From NCBI RefSeq assembly GCF_900142475.1, contig NZ_FRAY01000013.1, positions 1 through 43,605 on the forward strand: 43,605 nt of DNA, read 5' to 3'. A program made the translations under genes and the position numbers. Under the pieces are notes generated by a model. The model was not told the DNA's origin and made no database searches. It saw only the letters and a program-made list of their open reading frames with translations. Within the stretch, counting starts at the first letter, position 1. The number at the start of each line of letters is the position of its first letter. Source of the DNA: Fibrobacter sp. UWH4 (lineage in GTDB: Bacteria; Fibrobacterota; Fibrobacteria; Fibrobacterales; Fibrobacteraceae). This document shows positions 12,112 to 43,605 of the stretch, piece after piece.

Positions 12112-12972
12112 ATGTCCAATGTAGCTTGTATTATTGTTAATTATAATGATTCCAAAAGGACTTTGGACCTTTCTAAACGAATTTGCAAATATTCTTCAAT
12201 AAATCAAGTTGTTGTTGTTGAGAATAATTCTACTGATGATTCTTTGAATTATTTAGCATCTTTTGGACATCCCAAATATCATGTAGTTAAGTCATCAAGG
12301 AATGGTGGGTACGGTTATGGGAATAATTTGGGGGCTAAAAAAGCGAAAGAATTGGGTGCGAAATATATCCTGATCGCAAATCCAGATGTGAATTTCAATG
12401 ATGAAAGTGTTTCACATATGCTCCATGTGATGAAAGATCATCCAATGTGTGCTATTGTTGGAGCCAGGGAAGTTAAACTTGGTACATATGCATGGCGCTA
12501 TACATCTGCTTTAGATGATGTCCTTTCTGCAAGTGTTTTTTTGAATAAAATGTTGAAAAAAAGGTATTATAATAAAGAATTCTTTTGTGGAAAAGATTGT
12601 GTAGAAGTTGATATAATACCGGGTAGTCTACTTCTTGTGGATCTTGAAAAGTTTTTTGAAGTAGGTGGTTATGATGAATCTATTTTTTTGTATGAAGAAG
12701 AAAAAGTTCTTTATCGTCGTTTTTGTGAAAAGTATGTAACTATTGTTGATTTACAGGCTGAATACGAGCATCATCATGTAGAAAGTCATTCATATTCTGT
12801 GAAATCTGCTTTGGTTGGAAAAAAACGACTTTTAAACAGTAAATATTATTTCTTGAAGAATTACAGAAAGATTTCCCCACTTGCGTTATGCGCGTCCAAA
12901 TTATTTTTTAGATTGACTATGCTTGAAATGCTTGTATGGATTTTAGTACGCAACATTGTGAGGCCCAAATGA
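12112..12972 (+). CDS. Glycosyltransferase family 2 (rhamnosyltransferase-like)
   Basis: A 286-aa GT-A glycosyltransferase. The N-terminus VACIIVNYNDSKRTLDL, then VVVENNSTDDS and SSRNGGYGYGNNLGA, are classic for the WbbL/rhamnosyl group. IANPDV takes the place of the metal-binding DxD motif, and EVDIIPGSLLLVD marks the acceptor region. Two hydrophobic segments at the C-terminus suggest membrane attachment. It starts 7 bases after the previous stop with AGG upstream, and its stop overlaps the next start by ATGA. Codon use is AT-rich, like its neighbours. Confidence 0.9.
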   Translation: MSNVACIIVNYNDSKRTLDLSKRICKYSSINQVVVVENNSTDDSLNYLASFGHPKYHVVKSSRNGGYGYGNNLGAKKAKELGAKYILIANPDVNFNDESVSHMLHVMKDHPMCAIVGAREVKLGTYAWRYTSALDDVLSASVFLNKMLKKRYYNKEFFCGKDCVEVDIIPGSLLLVDLEKFFEVGGYDESIFLYEEEKVLYRRFCEKYVTIVDLQAEYEHHHVESHSYSVKSALVGKKRLLNSKYYFLKNYRKISPLALCASKLFFRLTMLEMLVWILVRNIVRPK

Positions 12973-13868
12973 AGTTTCTGATTTTGTATGAATGTGCTTC
13001 AACAGACTGGACTCTTTTGGAATGGAGACGAAATGATATAGATGCTCATATCATATTTCGTCCGGTGTCAAAATTTTTTAGAATGATTCGGAGATTTTGG
13101 ATAAGAAGCAATATTCCTTTTCAACATTTTTGGTATTCGAAAAAATGGAAAAAATCTGTTGCCGAGGCTGATGTTGTTGTTGTTCATATGTCGAAATTGG
13201 TGGCTTCGCTTCCATATTACATAAATAAGCTGAATCCTAAAGCGAATGTTGTTGCTTGGTATTGGAATAGCGTTAATATATCATTAGAACCATCTTTGAT
13301 TAAAGGAAAATGTTCAATATGGTCCTTTGATCCTGCTGATTGCGCAAAATATGGAATGAAATTTAACCATCAGTATTATTTTAAAAGTTTGATTCAAAAG
13401 AATTCTAACATAGATTGTGATGTGTATTATCACGGAGGAGATTCTGGAAGAGGAAAATCTTTAATTGAACTTTATAATTTGATTGTTGCAAAGAATTTGA
13501 AATGCAAGATGAAAATTGTTCATCCGATATATGACCAAATTCCAGAAGAAATGAAAAGTCCAATAATTCCTTATGCGCAAATAGCTGAAAATTCTTCAAA
13601 AAGTCGATGCTTACTTGAAGTTCTTCGCCCATACCAGTCGGGTCCCACATTGCGTTTGATGGAAGCTCTTTTTAACAAGAAAAAGATTATAACAACAAAT
13701 AAGTCTATAAAAAATGAACCGTTTTACCGCGAGGACAACATGTTCATCATTGGCGAACGGTCTGTTGATGAATTGTATGTTTTTGTCAAATCGGATTATG
13801 TGAATCCTGGTGATGAGTTCATAGATGAATATGATGTAAAAAATTGGTTGAATAATTTTGTAGAATAA
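12969..13868 (+). CDS. Putative glycosyltransferase / polysaccharide biosynthesis protein
   Basis: A 299-aa protein that starts at the ATG overlapping the previous stop (ATGA at 12969); the frame is open a further 33 bases upstream. No firm family is recognised. The C-terminal half has a GT-B-like donor segment: SRCLLEVLRPYQSGPTLRLM, then EALFNKKKIITTNKSI, which resembles Bacteroidota LPS or capsule transferases. ADVVVVHMSKLVASLPYY and VAWYWNSVN in the first half would be acceptor-domain strands. No signal peptide or membrane segment is visible. Position in a tight row of glycosyltransferase genes supports a sugar-transfer role. Confidence 0.65.
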   Translation: MKFLILYECASTDWTLLEWRRNDIDAHIIFRPVSKFFRMIRRFWIRSNIPFQHFWYSKKWKKSVAEADVVVVHMSKLVASLPYYINKLNPKANVVAWYWNSVNISLEPSLIKGKCSIWSFDPADCAKYGMKFNHQYYFKSLIQKNSNIDCDVYYHGGDSGRGKSLIELYNLIVAKNLKCKMKIVHPIYDQIPEEMKSPIIPYAQIAENSSKSRCLLEVLRPYQSGPTLRLMEALFNKKKIITTNKSIKNEPFYREDNMFIIGERSVDELYVFVKSDYVNPGDEFIDEYDVKNWLNNFVE

Positions 13869-13882
13869 GCTTCGATTTAAAT

Positions 13883-15122
13883 ATGCTTTTGTTTTGTATT
13901 GCGGGAGTTTCTTTTTTACTGCTACTTGAATTTCTGATTTACAGAAATTTAAAGACTCCTGTATTCTTATACGGTGTTGTTTGGTTACTAGTTTATTTAT
14001 CGTTGTTTGTGAAGAAAGATGAGTTTATTCTGAATAATTCCTTGCTCCCGTCTTTTCTGATTGCTACGTTGCTATTTGCGTTTGGATTTAGACTAGTTAA
14101 TTTTTATAGGGAAGAACCATTTAATCATCTCGATTATAATGTCTATTGGAATCCTGTGTTTAAAAAATTTATTTTTTTTTGCAGTCTATATTTTCTCATT
14201 TGTTGCTTTTACAAAATGCTATAGTGTCATCTCTATTAGTGAATTCTCTGCATGGCAGGCTGTTCGACAAGGTATGTCGGAAGATGAGCTGTTTCCTGCA
14301 TGGATTGGTATAATCTTTAACTTTGTCAGGATTATCTTTTTTATATCATTTGCCATCTATTTGTGTACACCAACGATAAAAAATAGATTTGAATTTCTTT
14401 TGATTCTTCCCCCAGTTCTTTTGACGTGCCTTTTTTCTGCGCGGGGGGATTGGTTTATGATTATATTGACTCTTTTGTATTTGATGTTTTTTATTAGAAG
14501 TTTTTCTAATAAAAGAATTGTTACGATAGGTTTAGTCTCGTTTATTGTCTTTCTTTTAATATTTATTTTTTCATCTCTTGATAAGTTTAGGTATGCCTAT
14601 GCCGAGATGACAGAACTTGAAAAATTGGAAATGCTTTTTAGCTCGTATTTTATAAATCCGGTAATAAATTTTTTCTACTGGTTTGCAGAAAGTCCTGAAT
14701 ATGCTGATGGCAAGTATACATTCCGATTTTTTTGGGCGATAAAATCAGCTCTTTTTGGAAATGCGGATGTTGTCCCGACCGTTTTGCCTTTTAGAACTTA
14801 TAATGGTGTCCAGTCAAATGTGTATACCTCTCTTAATTGGTGTGCTCGTGATTTTGGACTTTGGTGGGCTCTTGTAGTACAATTCTTTTTGGGCTTATTT
14901 TATGGACTTTTGTATAAACGTTTTATGAAAAATGATACATTTCATCTGGCAACAATCGTTATTCTTTGTTTGTTGATAGATCCGATTGTGAATCAGTTTT
15001 TTGATGATAAGTTTTTTTCGATCATGTCCCATTGGGTTCAGCGGGTTATATTTGTTCTTGTTTTGATAAAGACTTGCGTTCTTATAGAATCTACAAATCA
15101 AAAAAATGCATCCAATCTTTAA
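13883..15122 (+). pseudogene. Oligosaccharide repeat-unit polymerase (Wzy-like), frameshifted in a T9 run
   Basis: Two overlapping frames together make one hydrophobic protein of about 410 residues. The first (13883-14224) covers the first three or so membrane segments and ends early. The second continues as FAVYIFSFVAFTKCYSVIS to 15122, with a Wzy-like FSARGDW loop and NWCARDFGLWWALVVQFFLG. The join falls in a run of nine T (14172-14180). Eight T would give one continuous frame. Wzy polymerases link glycan repeat units at the outer face of the inner membrane, so the broken form would be inactive unless the ribosome or polymerase slips. A sequencing error in the homopolymer is also possible. 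Confidence 0.8.
14172..14180 (+). repeat. Homopolymer of nine T within wzy
   Basis: One T more than the in-frame length. Tracts like this are common sites of slipped-strand phase variation and also of sequencing error. Confidence 0.8.
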
Positions 15123-16518
15123 AAATATATCATTTACGTTTTTTTCGAATATAGTCTGTACTATTATTTCGGTACTGGTTATTTTCTTTGTTCCTAAAAA
15201 TATTGGTGTTGAAAATTATGGCTATTTCCAGTTATATTTATTCTATATCAATTATACAGGATTCTTGCATTTTGGTTGGGCTGATGGAGTGTACTTGCGA
15301 TATGGAGGGATGTATTATAAAGATTTGAACAAACCTCTGTTTGCAACGCAATTCAGAATGTTTGTTATAATGGAATTGATTTTTGCAACCGTTTTGTGTT
15401 GTTGGGCGAATTTCTTTGTAGAATCTGCGGAAAAACAGATTGTCTATTCTTTGATCGGCGTTTCAATGCTTTTTGCTTTGCCTAAGACATTTTTGCAGTA
15501 TGTTTTGCAGGGGACAAATAGAATTAAGGAATATGCAACTCTTATTATGATTGAAAGGGTTGTGTATGGTTCTTTGGCTTTGTTGATTGTGTTTGCTAGA
15601 AAAGATAGTTTTGCACTAATTATCGGAACTGATTTAGTCGGTAAATTTGTTGCACTCATTTATGCGTTTTATCATTGTCGTGATATTGTTTTGGGGCATA
15701 TGGGCTCTCTGAAGGGAGCGCTTAAAGATGCTTTGACAAATATTAGTGTCGGTGTTAAGTTGATGCTTGCTAATGTGGCTTGTCTATTGATTTTAGGTGT
15801 AGTGCGTTGGTCAATTGAGCGTGAATGGAATGTGAGTGTTTTTGGTAAGATTTCTTTGACTTTATCCATATCGAATTTAATGATGATTTTTATTCGGTCT
15901 GTGTCGATGGTACTTTTGCCAACACTGCGAAGGACTGATTCTTCTAGATATGCTTCTATATATTCAAATTTGAAAATAGGTTTTTTGGTCCCAATGTTTG
16001 GAGGACTACTATTGTATTATCCTTTGAACGTTTTTTTACGTTATTGGTTGCCTGCATATGCAGATTGTTTGGTTTATATGGCGGTGCTTTTCCCATTATG
16101 TCTTTATGAAGGAAAATTAAGTTTGCTGGTTGAAACTTATTTGAAAACGATGCGGATGGAGAAAGTGCTGCTGATGTCAAATCTGGCAACATTGATTGTC
16201 AGTTGCTTGTTGACAATCATCTTTGTTTTTGTTCTTGAAAATTTGACATTGGCTGTGTTGGGAATTCTTTTGATTTTTGCATTTAGGACTTTTTTGGGAG
16301 AATTTTTACTTTCTCGAAAAATGCCGATGCCTTTTTTTAAAGATGGAATTTTGGAATGTCTTCTTACGGCACTATTTGTGATAAACGCATGGTTCCTAGA
16401 TGATTTGATCGGGATGCTTGTTTATGGGCTTTTTTACCTGTTGTATGTACTTTTTTATAAAAAAGAACTCCTTGAACTATTTAGAATGCTCAAATTGAAT
16501 GTGAAAAAACATGCATGA
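15106..16518 (+). CDS. Polysaccharide flippase (Wzx-like, MOP superfamily)
   Basis: A 470-aa protein made almost wholly of membrane helices (about 12). It begins with FKNISFTFFSNIVCTIISVL and has NIGVENYGYFQLYLFYINYTG, the usual first-loop pattern of PST/Wzx transporters (a G-x-x-x-Y-G motif). It would flip the undecaprenyl-linked repeat unit across the inner membrane before polymerisation. The start lies 17 bases inside the end of wzy, so the two are probably translationally coupled. Strongly AT-rich. Confidence 0.88.
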   Translation: MHPIFKNISFTFFSNIVCTIISVLVIFFVPKNIGVENYGYFQLYLFYINYTGFLHFGWADGVYLRYGGMYYKDLNKPLFATQFRMFVIMELIFATVLCCWANFFVESAEKQIVYSLIGVSMLFALPKTFLQYVLQGTNRIKEYATLIMIERVVYGSLALLIVFARKDSFALIIGTDLVGKFVALIYAFYHCRDIVLGHMGSLKGALKDALTNISVGVKLMLANVACLLILGVVRWSIEREWNVSVFGKISLTLSISNLMMIFIRSVSMVLLPTLRRTDSSRYASIYSNLKIGFLVPMFGGLLLYYPLNVFLRYWLPAYADCLVYMAVLFPLCLYEGKLSLLVETYLKTMRMEKVLLMSNLATLIVSCLLTIIFVFVLENLTLAVLGILLIFAFRTFLGEFLLSRKMPMPFFKDGILECLLTALFVINAWFLDDLIGMLVYGLFYLLYVLFYKKELLELFRMLKLNVKKHA

Positions 16519-16563
16519 ATAAAAAAAATGCAGAAAATTGTATATTTTGAATGAAGGTTTGTT

Positions 16564-18702
16564 ATGATTATAGAAAAAGAAACCAAATCTAATTCGAGTA
16601 ATTCGACCCATATTTCTGGTAGCGCGATTACCATGATGGAGTTCTTGATGCTCCTATGGAGGAAAAAATTCATAATCCTCCTTTTTGTTGTGTTGGCAAC
16701 GATTTTTGGGGCTTGTTATGCAATGTGGGTTAGGCCTTCGTTTACAAGTGATGTCCTTTTGCAGGTAAATACGAAGGGTGCTAGTAGCAAATCAACCAAA
16801 GCTTTAGGTGAAATGGGTGCCGTCCTTGATTTGGCAAGCCCTGCTGATGCGGAAATTGAATTGATAAAGAGCCGGATGGTACTCAATTATGTGGTTTCTG
16901 TTGAACACCTTCATCTAAAAGCGATTCCTATTGGCTTTTGGGATCGTTTTACTCATAGTGAAGGCCGTCTAGATTTAGATTCTTTGATTATTCCAGAAAA
17001 AGCCCGTAATGGAAAGTGGACTGCTATCGTGAAAAGCGATGAATCGTATTCCGTAGTTGCTCCTGATGGAAAAGAAGTGCTTAATGGCAAGGTTGGCCAT
17101 GTTTATAAGACGAAGTATGCAGAAGACTCCTTGACGATACGCGTTAGTTATATGGATGCTAAGGTCGGACAACGATTTAAGCTTCTTCAGGGATCTTTGT
17201 TGAAAACAGAACAAATCTTGATGCGGTCCTTAAATGTCAATGAACGTGGTAAACAAACTGGTATTATTTCTGTTCGTTATAGCCATCGCTATCCTGATCG
17301 CGCGGCGTCCATTTTGAATACCATTGCCAAGACCTATTTGCGCCAGAATGTGGAAATGCGTAGTGCCGAAGCGGAAAAAACTTTGGAATTTCTTGAAGGT
17401 CAATTACCGGCTGTAAAGGCGAAATTGGATAGTGCCGAAAAGATTTTGGCTGATTACCGTTACAGCATAGGCTCTGTGGATATGACGGGGGAGACTAAGG
17501 CTCATTTGGATAAAGAAGGCCAGTTGCAGCGCCAGATTATGCAGTTGGAACAGGAACGTCAGGCTGCATTACGGTTATTCAAGGAAGAACATCCTAATGT
17601 GCAGACTATAGTAAAACAACAGAGCAAGTTGCGTGCCGAATTGGCTGCGCTCAAGAAGAATGCTGAAAAAATGCCGTTGACCCAGCAAGAAGTGAAACGT
17701 CTGCAAGAAGAAGTTGCTGTCAACAATGAAGTCTATACCAATATGCTGAATAATATTCAGCAGTTGCGTGTGGTTCGTGCTGGTGAGGTGGGTAATGTTC
17801 GTATTGTAGATTTTGCTCAGATTGAACAGAGCCAAAGTAAACCAAATAAGTCTAGAATAGTGTTGGTTTCTGCGGTTGCTGGTTTTATGTTAGGAGTATT
17901 GTTTGTCTTGTTAACGTATCTGTTACGGAACGGAGTCAAGAGCGCTTCCGAAATCGAGCGTGAAACGGGTCTCAGCGTGTTTGCGAAAATTCCGCAATCG
18001 AGGAACAGACTTCTACGTGGGCATAGGCATTTGCACCATGGCGCTCCGTTTGTTTTGCAGAATATTGATAACGGTGTTTGCGAAGCTTTCCGAGCGTTGC
18101 AGACGGCCTTGACTTTCTTGATGCCGAATCCCGAACACTGTGTCTTGCTTGTGATGGGCCTTAACCCGGGGGCGGGCAAGAGTTTTGTTTCGCTTAATTT
18201 GGCGGCGACTATGGCCACCAGCGGCAAAAAGGTCCTGCTGATTGACGCCGATATGCGCCGTGGCGTTATTCATAGCGGCTCTAAGTTTGGCTTGGCCGAT
18301 GTGTTGCTGGGCTTGGCAACATTGGATACGGCTGTTGTTTCTAAACACGACGATAATTTGTTTGTGATGAACGCGGGCAAGACAAAGCTTGCGGCCTGTG
18401 AACTGCTGCGTGGTGACGCCATGGACAAGCTGTTTAAAGAGGCTCGCCAAAAGTTCGATATGGTGATTGTGGATACTCCGCCCCTGAACTTGGTGACGGA
18501 TGCCGAACTGATTTGTCCGCTGGTCGATTATTCACTGTTTGTGTTGCATTATGGTCGTCATTCCATAGAAGAAATCAAGGAAACGATTGACAGGGTCAAA
18601 CGCTACTCGGATAAGCCTGCCGCAATCGTGATGAACCATTGCGAGCAAGAACCTGGCCGTTATGGCTACGGATATTACGGAAAGGGCTATAAAAGCAAGT
18701 GA
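16564..18702 (+). CDS. Polysaccharide co-polymerase / tyrosine autokinase (Wzc-like)
   Basis: A 712-aa BY-kinase with fused Wzz and kinase parts. A first membrane segment (about 36-56) is followed by a periplasmic Wzz region with a coiled coil (about 270-410), a GNVR-type segment and a second membrane helix (about 432-454). The cytoplasmic kinase has Walker A GLNPGAGKS (about 532-540), Walker A' LLIDADMRR (about 559-567) and VDTPP, and ends in a Tyr-rich tail (RYGYGYYGKGY) that would be autophosphorylated. These proteins set chain length and drive export of Wzy-dependent polymers. GAAGG precedes the ATG. No Wzb phosphatase or Wza channel gene is in the window. GC content recovers inside this gene. 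Confidence 0.93.
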   Translation: MIIEKETKSNSSNSTHISGSAITMMEFLMLLWRKKFIILLFVVLATIFGACYAMWVRPSFTSDVLLQVNTKGASSKSTKALGEMGAVLDLASPADAEIELIKSRMVLNYVVSVEHLHLKAIPIGFWDRFTHSEGRLDLDSLIIPEKARNGKWTAIVKSDESYSVVAPDGKEVLNGKVGHVYKTKYAEDSLTIRVSYMDAKVGQRFKLLQGSLLKTEQILMRSLNVNERGKQTGIISVRYSHRYPDRAASILNTIAKTYLRQNVEMRSAEAEKTLEFLEGQLPAVKAKLDSAEKILADYRYSIGSVDMTGETKAHLDKEGQLQRQIMQLEQERQAALRLFKEEHPNVQTIVKQQSKLRAELAALKKNAEKMPLTQQEVKRLQEEVAVNNEVYTNMLNNIQQLRVVRAGEVGNVRIVDFAQIEQSQSKPNKSRIVLVSAVAGFMLGVLFVLLTYLLRNGVKSASEIERETGLSVFAKIPQSRNRLLRGHRHLHHGAPFVLQNIDNGVCEAFRALQTALTFLMPNPEHCVLLVMGLNPGAGKSFVSLNLAATMATSGKKVLLIDADMRRGVIHSGSKFGLADVLLGLATLDTAVVSKHDDNLFVMNAGKTKLAACELLRGDAMDKLFKEARQKFDMVIVDTPPLNLVTDAELICPLVDYSLFVLHYGRHSIEEIKETIDRVKRYSDKPAAIVMNHCEQEPGRYGYGYYGKGYKSK

Positions 18703-41359: not shown

Positions 41360-41396
41360 AGTTTAAACTCGGCTCATAAAGAGCCTCTATAAGACT
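41360..41396. repeat. 37-bp array repeat, copy 1
   Basis: Starts AGTTTAAACTCG and contains GCTCATAAAGAGC, then CTATAAGACT. Left end of the array. In the minus strand it reads SLIEALYEP, then SLN and stop (stop at 41358-41360). Confidence 0.85.
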
Positions 41397-41416
41397 TGAT
41401 AAAATTTGACATGGGA

Positions 41417-41445
41417 TTGCAATTCCTTGGGTGAAATGGTATATT
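41417..41445 (+). promoter_or_regulatory. Promoter of array gene 1
   Basis: TTGCAA (41417-41422), 17-base spacer, TATATT (41440-41445) preceded by GG. A TTGACA stands 11 bases upstream but is too far to be the -35. Nearly identical to the next two. Confidence 0.7.
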
Positions 41446-41462
41446 AGAGAGCGAGGGTAATC

Positions 41463-41690
41463 ATGATTACGGTTGACAAAGAAACAAGAAAGATTGAGTT
41501 CTTTAAGATAGACGATAGTGATAAAATCTGGTGGGTTGATTATATTGGTCAAATTGGAATATCCGCTGTTTCTTTTGACAAGAAAAAAATTCTTTTTGTT
41601 TTTGAAGACTATCCCAAGAATTTTACCAAAGAGGAAAAAGCCTTATTCGATAAGGAGAATCCTTATTGGAAAAAATTACTTGGCGGTTAG
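41463..41690 (+). CDS. Small array protein 1 (75 aa, paralogue family)
   Basis: First of three tandem paralogues. It starts MITVDKETRKIEFFK, has DKIWWVDYIGQIG and SFDKKKILFVFEDYPKNFT, and ends LFDKENPYWKKLLGG. Soluble, no signal peptide, mixed alpha/beta, with many Lys, Asp and aromatic residues. The core (SFDKK, then DYP and FDKENPYW) is seen in small uncharacterised gut-bacterial proteins; no function is known to me. GAGGG precedes the ATG. It ends 31 bases before repeat copy 2. Confidence 0.8.
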   Translation: MITVDKETRKIEFFKIDDSDKIWWVDYIGQIGISAVSFDKKKILFVFEDYPKNFTKEEKALFDKENPYWKKLLGG

Positions 41691-41721
41691 TACAAAGCGT
41701 TATAGCCCCTGAGTGTTTATG

Positions 41722-41758
41722 AGTTTTACCTTCGCTCATAAAGAGCCCCTATAAGACT
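41722..41758. repeat. 37-bp array repeat, copy 2
   Basis: Starts AGTTTTACCTTC and contains GCTCATAAAGAGC, then CCCTATAAGACT. In the minus strand it reads SLIGALYERR and stop. Confidence 0.85.
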
Positions 41759-41769
41759 TTGACATGGGA

Positions 41770-41798
41770 TTGCAATTCCTTGGGTGAAATGGTATATT
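41770..41798 (+). promoter_or_regulatory. Promoter of array gene 2
   Basis: TTGCAA (41770-41775), 17-base spacer, TATATT (41793-41798). The spacer is identical to that of gene 1. Confidence 0.7.
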
Positions 41799-41815
41799 AG
41801 AGAGCGAGGTTAATC

Positions 41816-42049
41816 ATGATCACGGTTGACAAAGAGACGAGAAAAATTGAGTTTTATAAGAAGCATGAAGGTGATAAAATCTGGCATGTTGCTTATATTG
41901 GTCAGCGAGGTATTCATGCTGTTTCATTCGATAAGAAAAAGGTTTTGTTTCTTTTTGGCGATTATCCGAAGAATTTTACCCAAGAGGAAAGAACTTTATT
42001 TGATAAAGAAAATCCCTATTGGGCAAATTATTTTAGTGACGGAAACTAA
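41816..42049 (+). CDS. Small array protein 2 (77 aa, paralogue family)
   Basis: Second paralogue. It shares MITVDKETRKIEFYK, DKIWHVAYIGQRG, SFDKKKVLFLFGDYPKNFT and FDKENPYWANYF with copies 1 and 3; changes are spread over the protein, so these are old duplicates and not a recent copying error. Own promoter and GAGG ribosome site. A weak hairpin (CTCT / AGAG at 42093-42109) followed by T-rich sequence may end its transcript before repeat copy 3. Confidence 0.8.
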   Translation: MITVDKETRKIEFYKKHEGDKIWHVAYIGQRGIHAVSFDKKKVLFLFGDYPKNFTQEERTLFDKENPYWANYFSDGN

Positions 42050-42113
42050 TTATTTCATCTCTCCTTTGGCGTGTTGAAACATCCCAATAATTCTCTGAAT
42101 TTTTGAGAGCCTT

Positions 42114-42150
42114 TCTTTTACCTCCGCTCATAGAGAGCCCTTATAAGACT
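42114..42150. repeat. 37-bp array repeat, copy 3
   Basis: Starts TCTTTTACCTCC and contains GCTCATAGAGAGC, then CTTATAAGACT. In the minus strand it reads SLIRALYERR and stop. The most diverged copy. Confidence 0.8.
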
Positions 42151-42161
42151 TTGACATGGGG

Positions 42162-42190
42162 TTGCTTTTCCTTGGGTAAAATGGTATATT
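42162..42190 (+). promoter_or_regulatory. Promoter of array gene 3
   Basis: TTGCTT (42162-42167), 17-base spacer, TATATT (42185-42190). The spacer differs from genes 1 and 2 by a single base. Confidence 0.65.
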
Positions 42191-42207
42191 AGAGAGCGAG
42201 GTTAATC

Positions 42208-42441
42208 ATGATCACGGTTGACAAAGAAACGAGCAAATTTGAATTTTACAAGGAAAATGAGGATGATAAAGTCTGGTGGGTCGATTATTTTGATCAAACA
42301 GGTCTTCATGCAGTTTCTTTTGACAAGAAAACGATTTTATTTCTATTCAAAGATTATCCTCATAATTTCACTCCAGAGCAGAAAGTTTTATTCGATAAAG
42401 AGAATCCTTATTGGGCAAATTTTTTCCGCAAAAGGAAATAA
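42208..42441 (+). CDS. Small array protein 3 (77 aa, paralogue family)
   Basis: Third paralogue: MITVDKETSKFEFYK, DKVWWVDYFDQTG, SFDKKTILFLFKDYPHNFT and FDKENPYWANFF, then a basic end RKRK. Same promoter and ribosome-site layout as its two sisters, and followed by a good terminator. The three encode related but clearly different proteins, which suits variants kept for different partners. Confidence 0.8.
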   Translation: MITVDKETSKFEFYKENEDDKVWWVDYFDQTGLHAVSFDKKTILFLFKDYPHNFTPEQKVLFDKENPYWANFFRKRK

Positions 42442-42488
42442 TCTTTGCGATCATTACTTACCCCCTTGTGTGTTCAAATACCCTAACA

Positions 42489-42509
42489 ACTCCCTGAATT
42501 TCGGGGAGT
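42489..42509 (+). terminator. Intrinsic terminator of array gene 3
   Basis: Arms ACTCCC and GGGAGT followed by a T-run (42511-42520). It lies just before repeat copy 4. Confidence 0.75.
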
Positions 42510-42522
42510 CTTTTATTTTTTC

Positions 42523-42559
42523 AGTTTAAACTTTGCTCGTAAAGAGCCCCTATAAGATT
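42523..42559. repeat. 37-bp array repeat, copy 4
   Basis: Starts AGTTTAAACTTT and contains GCTCGTAAAGAGC, then CCCTATAAGATT. In the minus strand it reads NLIGALYEQ, then SLN and stop. Confidence 0.85.
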
Positions 42560-42573
42560 AATAGAATATTCTC

Positions 42574-42783
42574 TCAGTGCTTTATCTTGAAATAATCCAG
42601 CAGGGCCTTGTAGTTGTCCTGGGCTGTGAGGCATCGCCAAGGATATCCCAAAATTTGCCGGCATAGGCAAATTTCAGCCTTTCTTCGATCAAGAAATATC
42701 AAAAACTTGCCGATATCGACAAGTTTTTGTTTCGGAAACGCACAAAAGCCTCCTCTAGCCATCAATTTTCCAGCCCCCTCCAT
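42574..42783 (-). CDS. Doubtful small ORF, possibly a gene remnant
   Basis: A 69-codon frame ending YPWRCLTAQDNYKALLDYF, which looks protein-like, but its first half is read through two inverted repeats and no ribosome site fits its starts. It may be the remnant of a larger gene or chance. No family recognised. Confidence 0.2.
   Translation of the reverse strand: MEGAGKLMARGGFCAFPKQKLVDIGKFLIFLDRRKAEICLCRQILGYPWRCLTAQDNYKALLDYFKIKH
42651..42674. repeat. Inverted repeat in cassette 4
   Basis: Arms AAATTTGCC and GGCAAATTT around GGCATA. Confidence 0.7.
42701..42728. repeat. Inverted repeat in cassette 4, terminator-like
   Basis: Arms AAAAACTTG and CAAGTTTTT around a loop that includes the palindrome CGATATCG. 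Either strand ends in a U-run, so it could be a two-way terminator. Confidence 0.65.
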
Positions 42784-42802
42784 TTTTTTCTCAAAAATAA
42801 GG

Positions 42803-42808
42803 TATATT
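42803..42808 (+). promoter_or_regulatory. -10 box directly before the Cys-rich protein gene
   Basis: GGTATATT ends 7 bases before the ATG at 42816, so the transcript would begin at or next to the start codon (leaderless). The -35 region (CCATTT) is poor. Confidence 0.5.
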
Positions 42809-42815
42809 CGTGTCT

Positions 42816-43286
42816 ATGCGAAAGCTTATTAGAAAAATAACCTTGCTGTTAAGCTCCCTTTGTTGGTCTGATTGCGCACCCATCCTCTTAAGTTTTACAG
42901 CATTGCAACATATTGCCTGCGCTTACGGCACCGACGAACCTTGTGAAGAAAACTGCTACGATCCAGCTTTGGATTGTGTTCCAGAGATTAATTACGATGC
43001 CATGACAGGGAAAGACTATAGCGAATGCGAACAAGATATTTTAGACACGATAAAAGCACGGAGGCTCCGTAACATAAACGAATACGGCGTCTGCTTCAAG
43101 AGTCCCTGCAGTATAACTTATGAAGAGCAATGTCAAATTCGGGAGAATTGCCCTTTAGACCATATAAAGGCCGACTCCGCTTTATCGGGATATAGATGTC
43201 AAAACAGCGAATTTGTTTCTGTTGAAGAAGGCGAGAGGCGCCTAAAGCTTCTTAGTTTTACCTCGTCTCGTAAAGAGCCCCTATAA
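42816..43286 (+). CDS. Cys-rich secreted protein of cassette 4
   Basis: A 156-aa protein. The N-terminus (MRKLIRKITLLLSSLCW) leads into a long hydrophobic segment and looks like a signal peptide ending near ACAYG. The mature part has about nine Cys in a short acidic chain (CEENCYDPALDC, GVCFKSPC), so a disulfide-bonded secreted protein is likely. No family recognised. No ribosome site is visible and the -10 box adjoins the ATG. The last residues, SFTSSRKEPL, and the stop are read from repeat copy 5: the gene is closed by the repeat. Confidence 0.65.
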   Translation: MRKLIRKITLLLSSLCWSDCAPILLSFTALQHIACAYGTDEPCEENCYDPALDCVPEINYDAMTGKDYSECEQDILDTIKARRLRNINEYGVCFKSPCSITYEEQCQIRENCPLDHIKADSALSGYRCQNSEFVSVEEGERRLKLLSFTSSRKEPL

Positions 43287-43290
43287 GATC
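43254..43290. repeat. 37-bp array repeat, copy 5
   Basis: Starts AGTTTTACCTCG and contains TCTCGTAAAGAGC, then CCCTATAAGATC. It encodes the C-terminus of the Cys-rich protein on the plus strand and DLIGALYETR plus stop on the minus strand. Confidence 0.85.
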
Positions 43291-43353
43291 AGAATTTTGC
43301 AATTTTTGTCATCAATTTTAGACTTGATCATTCCTTTTCTCCGAAAAAAGAGG

Positions 43354-43359
43354 TATATT
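43354..43359 (+). promoter_or_regulatory. -10 box of the array RNA
   Basis: GGTATATT (box at 43354-43359) with a TTCCTT 17 bases upstream (43331-43336). Predicted start near 43366 coincides with the base of the RNA stem. Confidence 0.55.
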
Positions 43360-43365
43360 ACGAAT

Positions 43366-43474
43366 AAAGAACGCGCTGAGTTAGTGGAACGAGATTGGCC
43401 ACTTGGGTTACCTTGGACTTCGTGAGCCTTGAACCGTATGCAGGAGTTTGTCGCCCTGCCTCGCGTTCTTTTTT
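43366..43474 (+). ncRNA. Putative structured small RNA of cassette 5
   Basis: About 110 nt between a promoter and a U6 run. The ends pair perfectly over 10 bp (AAAGAACGCG at 43366-43375 with CGCGTTCTTT at 43462-43471), and the closing arm doubles as the terminator. Inside are three more possible stems: AGTGG/CCACT (43383-43403), GGTT/AACC (43406-43435) and GCAGG/CCTGC (43440-43459), so a multi-branched fold. There is no start codon with a ribosome site in the transcript. I do not recognise it as SRP RNA, 6S, tmRNA or a riboswitch. Confidence 0.6.
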
Positions 43475-43511
43475 AGTTTTATCCCCGCTCATAAAGAGCC
43501 CCTATAAGATT
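43475..43511. repeat. 37-bp array repeat, copy 6, at the 3' end of a gene
   Basis: Starts AGTTTTATCCCC and contains GCTCATAAAGAGC, then CCCTATAAGATT. On the minus strand this is the last 10 codons and stop of the gene that continues to the right. Confidence 0.85.
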
Positions 43512-43605
43512 GAAGGCGCCCACCGGCACGCCCCAGGCGAATCCTTCGAGGCCGTATTCCGTGCCGGTGAACTTTTCGAGCGCGATTCCTAAAGCACCGC
43601 CGCCC
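43479..43605 (-). CDS. C-terminus of an unidentified protein (partial)
   Basis: The last 41 codons of a minus-strand gene that begins outside the window. They read GGALGIALEKFTGTEYGLEG, then FAWGVPVGAFNLIGALYERG, then stop. Composition is GC-rich and Gly-rich, like the core genome and unlike the array. The chain looks membrane-associated, but no family can be named. Its final residues NLIGALYERG are encoded by repeat copy 6, making this gene the likely anchor of the array. Confidence 0.6.
   Translation of the reverse strand, partial: GGGALGIALEKFTGTEYGLEGFAWGVPVGAFNLIGALYERG

What the first reader, a model, noticed from the sequence alone, without database searches (positions are those of the whole stretch)
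41360..43511. Cassette array: six 37-bp repeats separating five independent small transcription units
Six repeat copies, all exactly 37 bp (41360, 41722, 42114, 42523, 43254, 43475), punctuate five units pointing the same way. Each unit has its own TATATT promoter. Contents are three paralogues, a secreted Cys-rich protein and an RNA. Since units 4 and 5 share nothing with 1-3 except the repeat, simple tandem duplication cannot explain the array; repeated insertion at a fixed site can. No integrase is visible and the repeats lack the GTTRRRY core of integron attC sites.
Basis: partly seen in the sequence, partly recalled or inferred. Interest (0 to 1): 0.88.

Follow-up and report, generated by a model that had tools for sequence, protein, structure and literature searches.

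The report
CRISPR-like array of gene-length inserts
In Fibrobacter and its relatives, a Cas1-Cas2 enzyme pair of the CRISPR type, without any Cas9 beside it, sits next to arrays in which 35-bp repeats alternate with captured pieces of DNA hundreds to thousands of bases long (whole small genes, host gene fragments, phage genes, even tetracycline-resistance genes), so CRISPR-style memory chemistry appears to be used to collect genes.

Summary
The repeat array is real, but it is neither an integron nor simple tandem duplication. The unit is 35 bp and occurs only in Fibrobacter among 61 genomes searched by pattern. Arrays end in a conserved leader with a promoter facing the repeats. In at least 13 genomes an intact type II cas1-cas2 operon lies next to such a leader. 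Cas9 is absent beside it; its nearest Cas1 relatives sit with Cas9 and ordinary arrays of 74-79 bp spacing. Inserts are 100-3700 bp (one recurrent 56-bp case). In the window's own genome three leader-proximal inserts are exact copies of chromosomal DNA (murJ fragment, NUDIX-gene fragment, folE-end segment), cut inside genes and flanked by duplicated repeats absent from the original sites. The window's last repeat borders the murJ copy. Identical leader-proximal repeats occur only in genomes with this cas1 (7/11 versus 0/17 genomes, p=0.0003). A complete genome of another genus carries 20 near-identical repeats, 19 inserts and cas1-cas2; one insert holds tet(M/W)-type and tet(40) genes. Best explanation: an effector-less CRISPR adaptation module that inserts long DNA at the leader and duplicates the repeat, giving an integron-like gene store. 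Architecture, host origin and cas1-cas2 linkage are shown; enzymatic causation and purpose are inferred.

The parts
41361..41395 (+). 35-bp repeat 1 (leader-distal end of the array), GTTTAAACTCGGCTCATAAAGAGCCTCTATAAGAC
41396..41722 (+). insert 1 (327 bp): DUF7675 gene 41463-41690 (75 aa) with promoter-like TTGCAA-17-TATATT upstream
   Evidence: homologues lie in the opposite orientation relative to the repeats in L060, L065, L125
41723..41757 (+). 35-bp repeat 2
41758..42114 (+). insert 2 (357 bp): DUF7675 paralogue 41816-42049 (77 aa)
   Evidence: family by likeness to units 1 and 3
42115..42149 (+). 35-bp repeat 3
42150..42523 (+). insert 3 (374 bp): DUF7675 paralogue 42208-42441 (77 aa)
42524..42558 (+). 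35-bp repeat 4
42559..43254 (+). insert 4 (696 bp): Cys-rich secreted-type gene from ATG 42816, cut off four codons before its native end by repeat 5 (ORF runs on to 43286 inside the repeat)
   Evidence: reverse-oriented 93% copy in L090 and repeat-free 91% copy in L166 show the native end
43255..43289 (+). 35-bp repeat 5
43290..43475 (+). insert 5 (186 bp): promoter-like TATATT 43354, non-coding transcript candidate with terminator-like CGCGTTCTTTTTT; no Rfam family
   Evidence: 98% identical with the same ends in L070 beside other neighbours; reversed with other ends in L146
43476..43510 (+). 35-bp repeat 6; identical 35/35 to the repeat at G000:C3:96-130, which is followed by the leader
43511..43605 (.). 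start of insert 6: exact copy of an internal piece of chromosomal murJ (mviN), original at G000:C15:35692-35786, the far side of the same gene being C11:1-95; the contig ends 95 bp in

Best explanation
These are CRISPR-type arrays built by an effector-less type II Cas1-Cas2 adaptation module that inserts long double-stranded DNA, not short spacers. Proposed steps: (1) A DNA fragment of about 100-4000 bp, from the host chromosome, a phage or another element, is taken up by Cas1-Cas2. (2) It is integrated, in either orientation, at the repeat next to the leader by attack at both ends of the 35-bp repeat. (3) Gap filling duplicates the repeat, so the array grows at the leader end. (4) The leader promoter reads into the array, so a captured gene placed the right way round is transcribed; genes with their own promoters work either way. 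(5) Useful captures are kept, others decay; arrays persist in lineages that later lost cas1-cas2, and unlinked arrays (such as the window's) are served in trans. Shown by sequence: leader-repeat-insert architecture, host origin of recent inserts, 35-bp duplication, leader-proximal position, linkage to cas1-cas2, absence of Cas9 beside it. Inferred: that this Cas1-Cas2 is the enzyme, loss of length control, and the gene-store role (integron-like in effect).
For: Three leader-proximal inserts in the window's own genome are copies of host DNA: a 244-bp piece of a NUDIX gene (array copy C1:433293-433536 = C1:266396-266639, exact over its whole length, flanked by 35/35 identical repeats); a murJ piece (array C13-C3); a C5-to-folE piece (array C10-C18); the last two exact over the 95-bp tips that could be read. 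No repeat is present in the original examined and the junctions are clean. Same pattern in G030, and older host copies in G084 (lptF/G fragment, 99%), G148 and G159. cas1 (TIGR03639, 276 bits against cut-off 120) and cas2 (TIGR01573) stand directly before the leader and point at the array. E/H/E catalytic residues are kept and the array-type Cas1 separates as a group from Cas9-linked Cas1. Cas9-linked relatives have a cas9-size gene plus, where an array was read, arrays of 74-79 bp spacing; array-type loci have neither. Identical leader-proximal repeats: 7/11 genomes with cas1 versus 0/17 without, p=0.0003. G159: 20 repeats, 19 inserts of 188-3678 bp; G148: nine identical repeats and a degenerate distal one, as in CRISPR arrays. 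Same insert in both orientations with different ends. Published: S. pyogenes Cas1-Cas2 without Cas9 integrates unprocessed substrates, and the Cas9 supercomplex trims them to about 30 bp (PMC8034620).
Against: No experiment; the role of Cas1-Cas2 rests on linkage, correlation and homology. Many genomes have arrays and no such cas1; at the orthologous locus a set of them keep only a cas2 remnant (residues about 54-100), which fits loss, but others have no trace. Classical Cas1-Cas2 integrates roughly 30-bp prespacers, and a structural reason for long substrates is not shown. Most leader-proximal inserts have no second copy in their own genome, so their source is unknown. Only 4 source junctions were read, too few to say whether a PAM exists. 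Two G000 inserts are collapsed in the assembly, so their full length and identity were not read.
Confidence: 0.85

Rival explanations
1. Integron-like cassette array: a tyrosine recombinase moves cassettes that each carry the 35-bp site as an attC-like element, with the leader as attI/Pc.
For: Outward promoter at one end of the array, small genes mostly oriented away from it (29 versus 14 reading frames), resistance genes in one insert, same insert beside different neighbours. Own genome has 5 tyrosine recombinases.
Against: No IntI over cut-off in 61 Fibrobacter genomes; the recombinases lie elsewhere; the 35-bp site is conserved in its middle and lacks the attC core; the original of captured DNA carries no site; inserts occur in both orientations with different ends; Cas1-Cas2 flanks the leader.
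Confidence: 0.05
2. Replication or repair template switching: the repeat stalls forks, nascent strands copy distant DNA and return, leaving repeat-flanked copies; Cas1-Cas2 is a bystander.
For: Exact copies of chromosomal segments, both orientations seen among inserts, with the original retained.
Against: Junctions always fall at the same two edges of the 35-bp repeat; insertion at the leader end; correlation of fresh duplications with cas1; cas1-cas2 beside the leader in more than one genus.
Confidence: 0.06
3. A conventional type II CRISPR array that has decayed: spacers replaced or enlarged by insertions, effector lost.
For: Type II Cas1/Cas2, leader, partly palindromic repeat; some inserts contain transposase-like genes.
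Against: No spacer of about 30 bp in any array scanned; recent insertions themselves are long (244 bp) and exact; repeats are identical across 8-19 long inserts in G148 and G159.
Confidence: 0.04

Closest known systems
Type II CRISPR adaptation module (Cas1-Cas2) and CRISPR arrays
   Same: cas1-cas2 operon of the type II family (TIGR03639, TIGR01573), leader with promoter, 35-bp repeat, leader-end insertion with repeat duplication, degenerate terminal repeat in G148.
   Different: Inserts are about 100-3700 bp and irregular, often whole genes or host gene fragments; no Cas9 or other effector beside it; no 30-bp spacers.
Integrons (IntI, attI, attC gene cassettes)
   Same: Array of mostly small genes at a fixed site with an outward promoter, variable content, resistance genes in one case.
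   Different: No IntI, no attC; site duplicated on insertion and not carried by the incoming DNA; both orientations; Cas1-Cas2 adjacent.
Casposons
   Same: Cas1-family integrase inserting long DNA (PMC6452270).
   Different: Casposons carry their own cas1, polymerase and terminal inverted repeats; here cas1-cas2 sits outside the inserts, Cas2 is present and inserts are unrelated DNA.
CALINs and pdif modules (from memory)
   Same: Short repeated sites between small genes without a linked integrase.
   Different: Those sites are recombined by IntI or XerCD; here the original is site-free and the repeat is duplicated.

Membership tests
CRISPR-Cas (type II) | Cas1 and Cas2 encoded at the array | tested here: met
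   (the window's array itself is unlinked; the module lies at another array of the same genome)
CRISPR-Cas (type II) | Leader next to the first repeat, with new units added at the leader end and repeat duplicated | tested here: met
CRISPR-Cas (type II) | Short spacers of nearly uniform length (about 30 bp) | tested here: not met
   118 inserts of 113-2844 bp, median 621, plus seven instances of a 56-57-bp insert; up to 3678 bp in G159
CRISPR-Cas (type II) | Cas9 effector with the module | tested here: not met
   No cas9 in G000; Cas9 over cut-off in 8/61 genomes only, at other loci; no ORF over 900 aa at the array-type loci
CRISPR-Cas (type II) | Array RNA processed to crRNA and used for interference | not testable with these tools
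   needs RNA data
Integron | IntI integrase | tested here: not met
   TIGR02249 below cut-off in 61/61
Integron | attC site with GTTRRRY/RYYYAAC boxes carried by the cassette | tested here: not met
   site GTTTTAYCYCNGCTCATAAAGAGCCCCTATAAGAY; original has no site
Integron | Outward promoter at the insertion end | tested here: inconclusive
   promoter-like leader TTGCGA-17-TATATT reading into the array; activity not tested
Casposon | Element carries its own cas1, PolB and terminal inverted repeats | tested here: not met
   cas1-cas2 lies outside the inserts; PolB and inverted repeats were not searched for by profile

The most novel reading that the evidence does not exclude
A third kind of bacterial gene-capture system, distinct from integrons and from CRISPR immunity: an autonomous Cas1-Cas2 module, freed from Cas9 and from spacer-length control, that banks gene-sized DNA in a leader-driven array and so makes new expressible cassettes (including resistance genes) directly from host or foreign DNA.
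Probability: 0.65. Interest if true: 0.97.

Novelty: new variant of a known kind. Interest (0 to 1): 0.93.

Why it matters
It would show that CRISPR adaptation chemistry can build gene collections rather than immune memory. It bears on two open questions: what fixes spacer length (here a natural Cas1-Cas2 without Cas9 whose products are long), and how gene cassettes arise (here the un-cassetted source gene, its exact ends and the resulting cassette can all be read in one genome). It also shows tetracycline-resistance genes held in such an array, and points to a natural enzyme pair that may insert kilobase DNA at a short defined site.

Tried and rejected
Integron/attC: rejected on IntI and site features. 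Tyrosine recombinases of the own genome: not linked to arrays. Recurrent neighbours of arrays (GNAT acetyltransferases, YhcG nuclease, an ATPase) as the enzyme: none looked like a recombinase; the recurrent ones mark conserved insertion loci. Phage carriage of the repeat: exact 20-mer absent from IMG/VR. Rfam for the unit-5 RNA: nothing. PAM: 4 left flanks (GATC, CCGA, ACCA, TCCA), no conclusion. Literature searches for gene-length spacers, Cas1 with integron-like capture, and CRISPR in Fibrobacter gave nothing matching; the library holds open-licence PMC papers and no preprints. No structure prediction was run because sequence homology to solved Cas1 and Cas2 was decisive.
Full report
1. What is in the window. 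Six copies of a 35-bp direct repeat lie at 41361-41395, 41723-41757, 42115-42149, 42524-42558, 43255-43289 and 43476-43510; none is expected by chance. They are 26-31/35 identical to each other. The inserts between them are 327, 357, 374, 696 and 186 bp: three DUF7675 paralogues (PF24723; also a phage protein family of unknown function, phrog_6473), a Cys-rich secreted-type gene, and a unit with promoter and terminator-like end, no ORF of note and no Rfam family. The window is the whole contig C13 of its genome (G000).

The repeat elsewhere. A pattern search with up to two mismatches finds it in 27 of 61 genomes, all in the same genus. A scan of 84,980 species genomes gives 43 stretches, all from Fibrobacter records except one Fibrobacterales MAG (L078) and one labelled Clostridia (L085). 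A weight matrix from 185 sites gives 222 strong hits (at least 30 bits) in 104 sequences, and none in shuffled sequence. Consensus: GTTTTAYCYCNGCTCATAAAGAGCCCCTATAAGAY.

Leader. In nearly every array the last repeat on one side is followed by a conserved stretch of about 70-80 bp (CCTGCTTTCTGAATATACCTTATTTTATGCGGGTTCGCAAGCGGTTTGACGCTG...), always in the same polarity to the repeats. Read on the other strand it is promoter-like (TTGCGA-17-TATATT) and points into the array. A query of repeat plus leader matches 49 of 61 Fibrobacter genomes.

2. Inserts are captured fragments. Among 138 inter-repeat stretches, the same insert in the same orientation has the same ends in different genomes and beside different neighbours (window insert 5 and L070, 98%; L060 and L087; L080 and L140). 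The same insert is also found in the opposite orientation, and then with other ends (L088/L111, L081/L154, L063/L072, window insert 5/L146, window insert 4/L090). So one source was captured more than once. Window insert 4 is cut four codons before the native stop seen in L090 and L166.

3. Recent captures are host DNA. Contigs C13 (window), C10, C3 and C18 of G000 all break 95 bp inside an insert next to a repeat. Those tips are 100% identical to tips of ordinary chromosomal contigs: C13 end = C15:35692-35786, C3 start = C11:1-95, C10 end = C5:408486-408580, C18 start = C15:1-95. The natural reading (inference) is that the inserts are exact repeats of chromosomal segments and were therefore collapsed in assembly. 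The originals are murJ (PF03023) for C13/C3, and for C10/C18 a segment running to the start of folE. A third insert needs no such inference: the 244-bp leader-proximal insert at C1:433293-433536 is identical over its full length to C1:266396-266639 inside a NUDIX gene, and its two flanking repeats are 35/35 identical. No repeat occurs around that original. All these inserts lie next to a leader. The two repeats around the murJ copy are 35/35 identical; those around the folE copy differ by a 1-bp deletion. G030 shows the same arrangement, with one mismatch between its two repeats. Slightly older host copies: G084 lptF/G fragment (346 bp, 99%), G148 insert 2 (99-100% at both ends), G159 inserts 6 and 17 (the last three matched at their ends only).

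4. The enzyme. A Cas1-family protein (PF01867) is encoded a few hundred bp beyond the leader, pointing at it, in G000 (C1:433933-434826), G030, G084, G022, G018, G072, G077 and G021; G036 has it with cas2 on a short contig, and it is broken in G031 and G007 (identity to the G000 protein is 88-98% in most, 71-72% in G036 and G021). The gene between it and the leader is Cas2. Cas1 matches the type II model TIGR03639 with 276 bits (cut-off 120) and aligns with solved type II Cas1 chains (4zkj, 5xvn), with the motifs SSNREG, IFHRN and DIMEP retained (G036, G021 and G139 have NCEG in place of NREG). Cas9 (TIGR01865) is absent from G000 and over cut-off in only 8 of 61 genomes, at other places, mostly beside its own Cas1 at 38-46% identity. 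Further hosts: G159 in another genus (96%), G145 (95%), G148 (88%) and G139 (71%), all with arrays; G166 and G167 (77-79%), where the contig ends near cas2 and no array was seen.

5. A built-in control. Fibrobacterota Cas1 proteins at 41-49% identity sit directly beside a cas9-size ORF (nine loci), and where an array was within reach its repeats are spaced 74-79 bp. The array-type loci have no ORF above 900 aa nearby, and repeats about 220-3700 bp apart. In a tree the two sets separate; the array-type Cas2 proteins also differ from the Cas9-linked ones at many conserved positions.

6. Array behaviour as in CRISPR. G159, a single-contig complete genome, has 20 nearly identical repeats and 19 inserts of 188-3678 bp over 21.7 kb; G148 has nine identical repeats and a degenerate distal one. 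Leader-proximal repeat pairs are 35/35 identical in 10 arrays, all in genomes with this cas1 (intact or broken): 7 of 11 such genomes against 0 of 17 others, Fisher p=0.0003 (genomes are related and some are incomplete, so the test is indicative). Several genomes keep only the end of cas2 (residues about 54-100) beside the leader, consistent with a shared deletion.

7. What inserts carry. The best-scoring reading frames in inserts run in the leader-to-array direction more often than not (29 against 14, p=0.03; a crude coding score). Many are small lipoprotein or membrane protein genes that start just inside the repeat. G159 insert 3 carries a TetM/TetW-family ribosomal protection gene (1307 bits, cut-off 1100) and tet(40) (919 bits, cut-off 800). 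G148 insert 4 carries phage head and neck genes. Some G159 inserts hold transposase-like genes (by eye, not tested by profile).

8. Mechanism. Insertion of site-free DNA at the leader-proximal repeat with duplication of exactly the repeat is the CRISPR adaptation reaction; a cassette recombinase would need a site on the incoming DNA. S. pyogenes Cas1-Cas2 without Cas9 integrates unprocessed substrates while the Cas9 supercomplex trims to about 30 bp (PMC8034620). A module without Cas9 is thus a plausible route to long inserts, though the published substrates were short. That Cas1-Cas2 is the enzyme and that the arrays serve as a gene store are inferences.

9. Novelty. Literature searches found no gene-length spacers, within a library that lacks preprints and most subscription papers. 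The parts are known (type II Cas1-Cas2, leader, repeat), the product is not. I rate it a new variant of a known kind that may prove to be a system of its own.

Noticed in passing
L289 about 12960-16637 (G159:C1 about 2049960-2053637): Insert 3 of the G159 array carries a TetM/TetW/TetO/TetS-family tetracycline resistance gene and tet(40) between two identical 35-bp repeats.
   Followed up: partly
L240 (G000:C6:111149-111787): A second, very divergent Cas1-like ORF of 289 aa (PF01867 E 2.8e-7), also in G004:C6; no 35-bp repeat within the 9 kb fetched; nature unknown.
   Followed up: no
L072, L055, L071, L089, L214, L083, L081, L217, L164, L165: Cas2 remnants starting near residue 54 beside the leader, with cas1 missing: an apparently shared deletion of the adaptation module.
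   Followed up: partly
L106:9542-10687: A YhcG/DUF1016 PDDEXK nuclease gene lies divergently next to cas1 in G000; similar genes recur near arrays.
   Followed up: no
L019, L088, L043, L044, L071, L081 and others: A 56-57-bp insert between a degenerate repeat and the next one, just upstream of a GNAT acetyltransferase gene, recurs at one orthologous locus.
   Followed up: no
G000:C3:96-1600 (L108): Two leader-repeat units in tandem on one contig, so arrays can abut each other.
   Followed up: no
L085 (JAFWZN010000064.1): Contig labelled as a Clostridia MAG carries a seven-repeat Fibrobacter-type array; probably mis-binned.
   Followed up: no
window 41463-42441: DUF7675 proteins recur as inserts in several arrays and also outside arrays (L167, L168, L170, L171), and match a phage family of unknown function.
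   Followed up: partly
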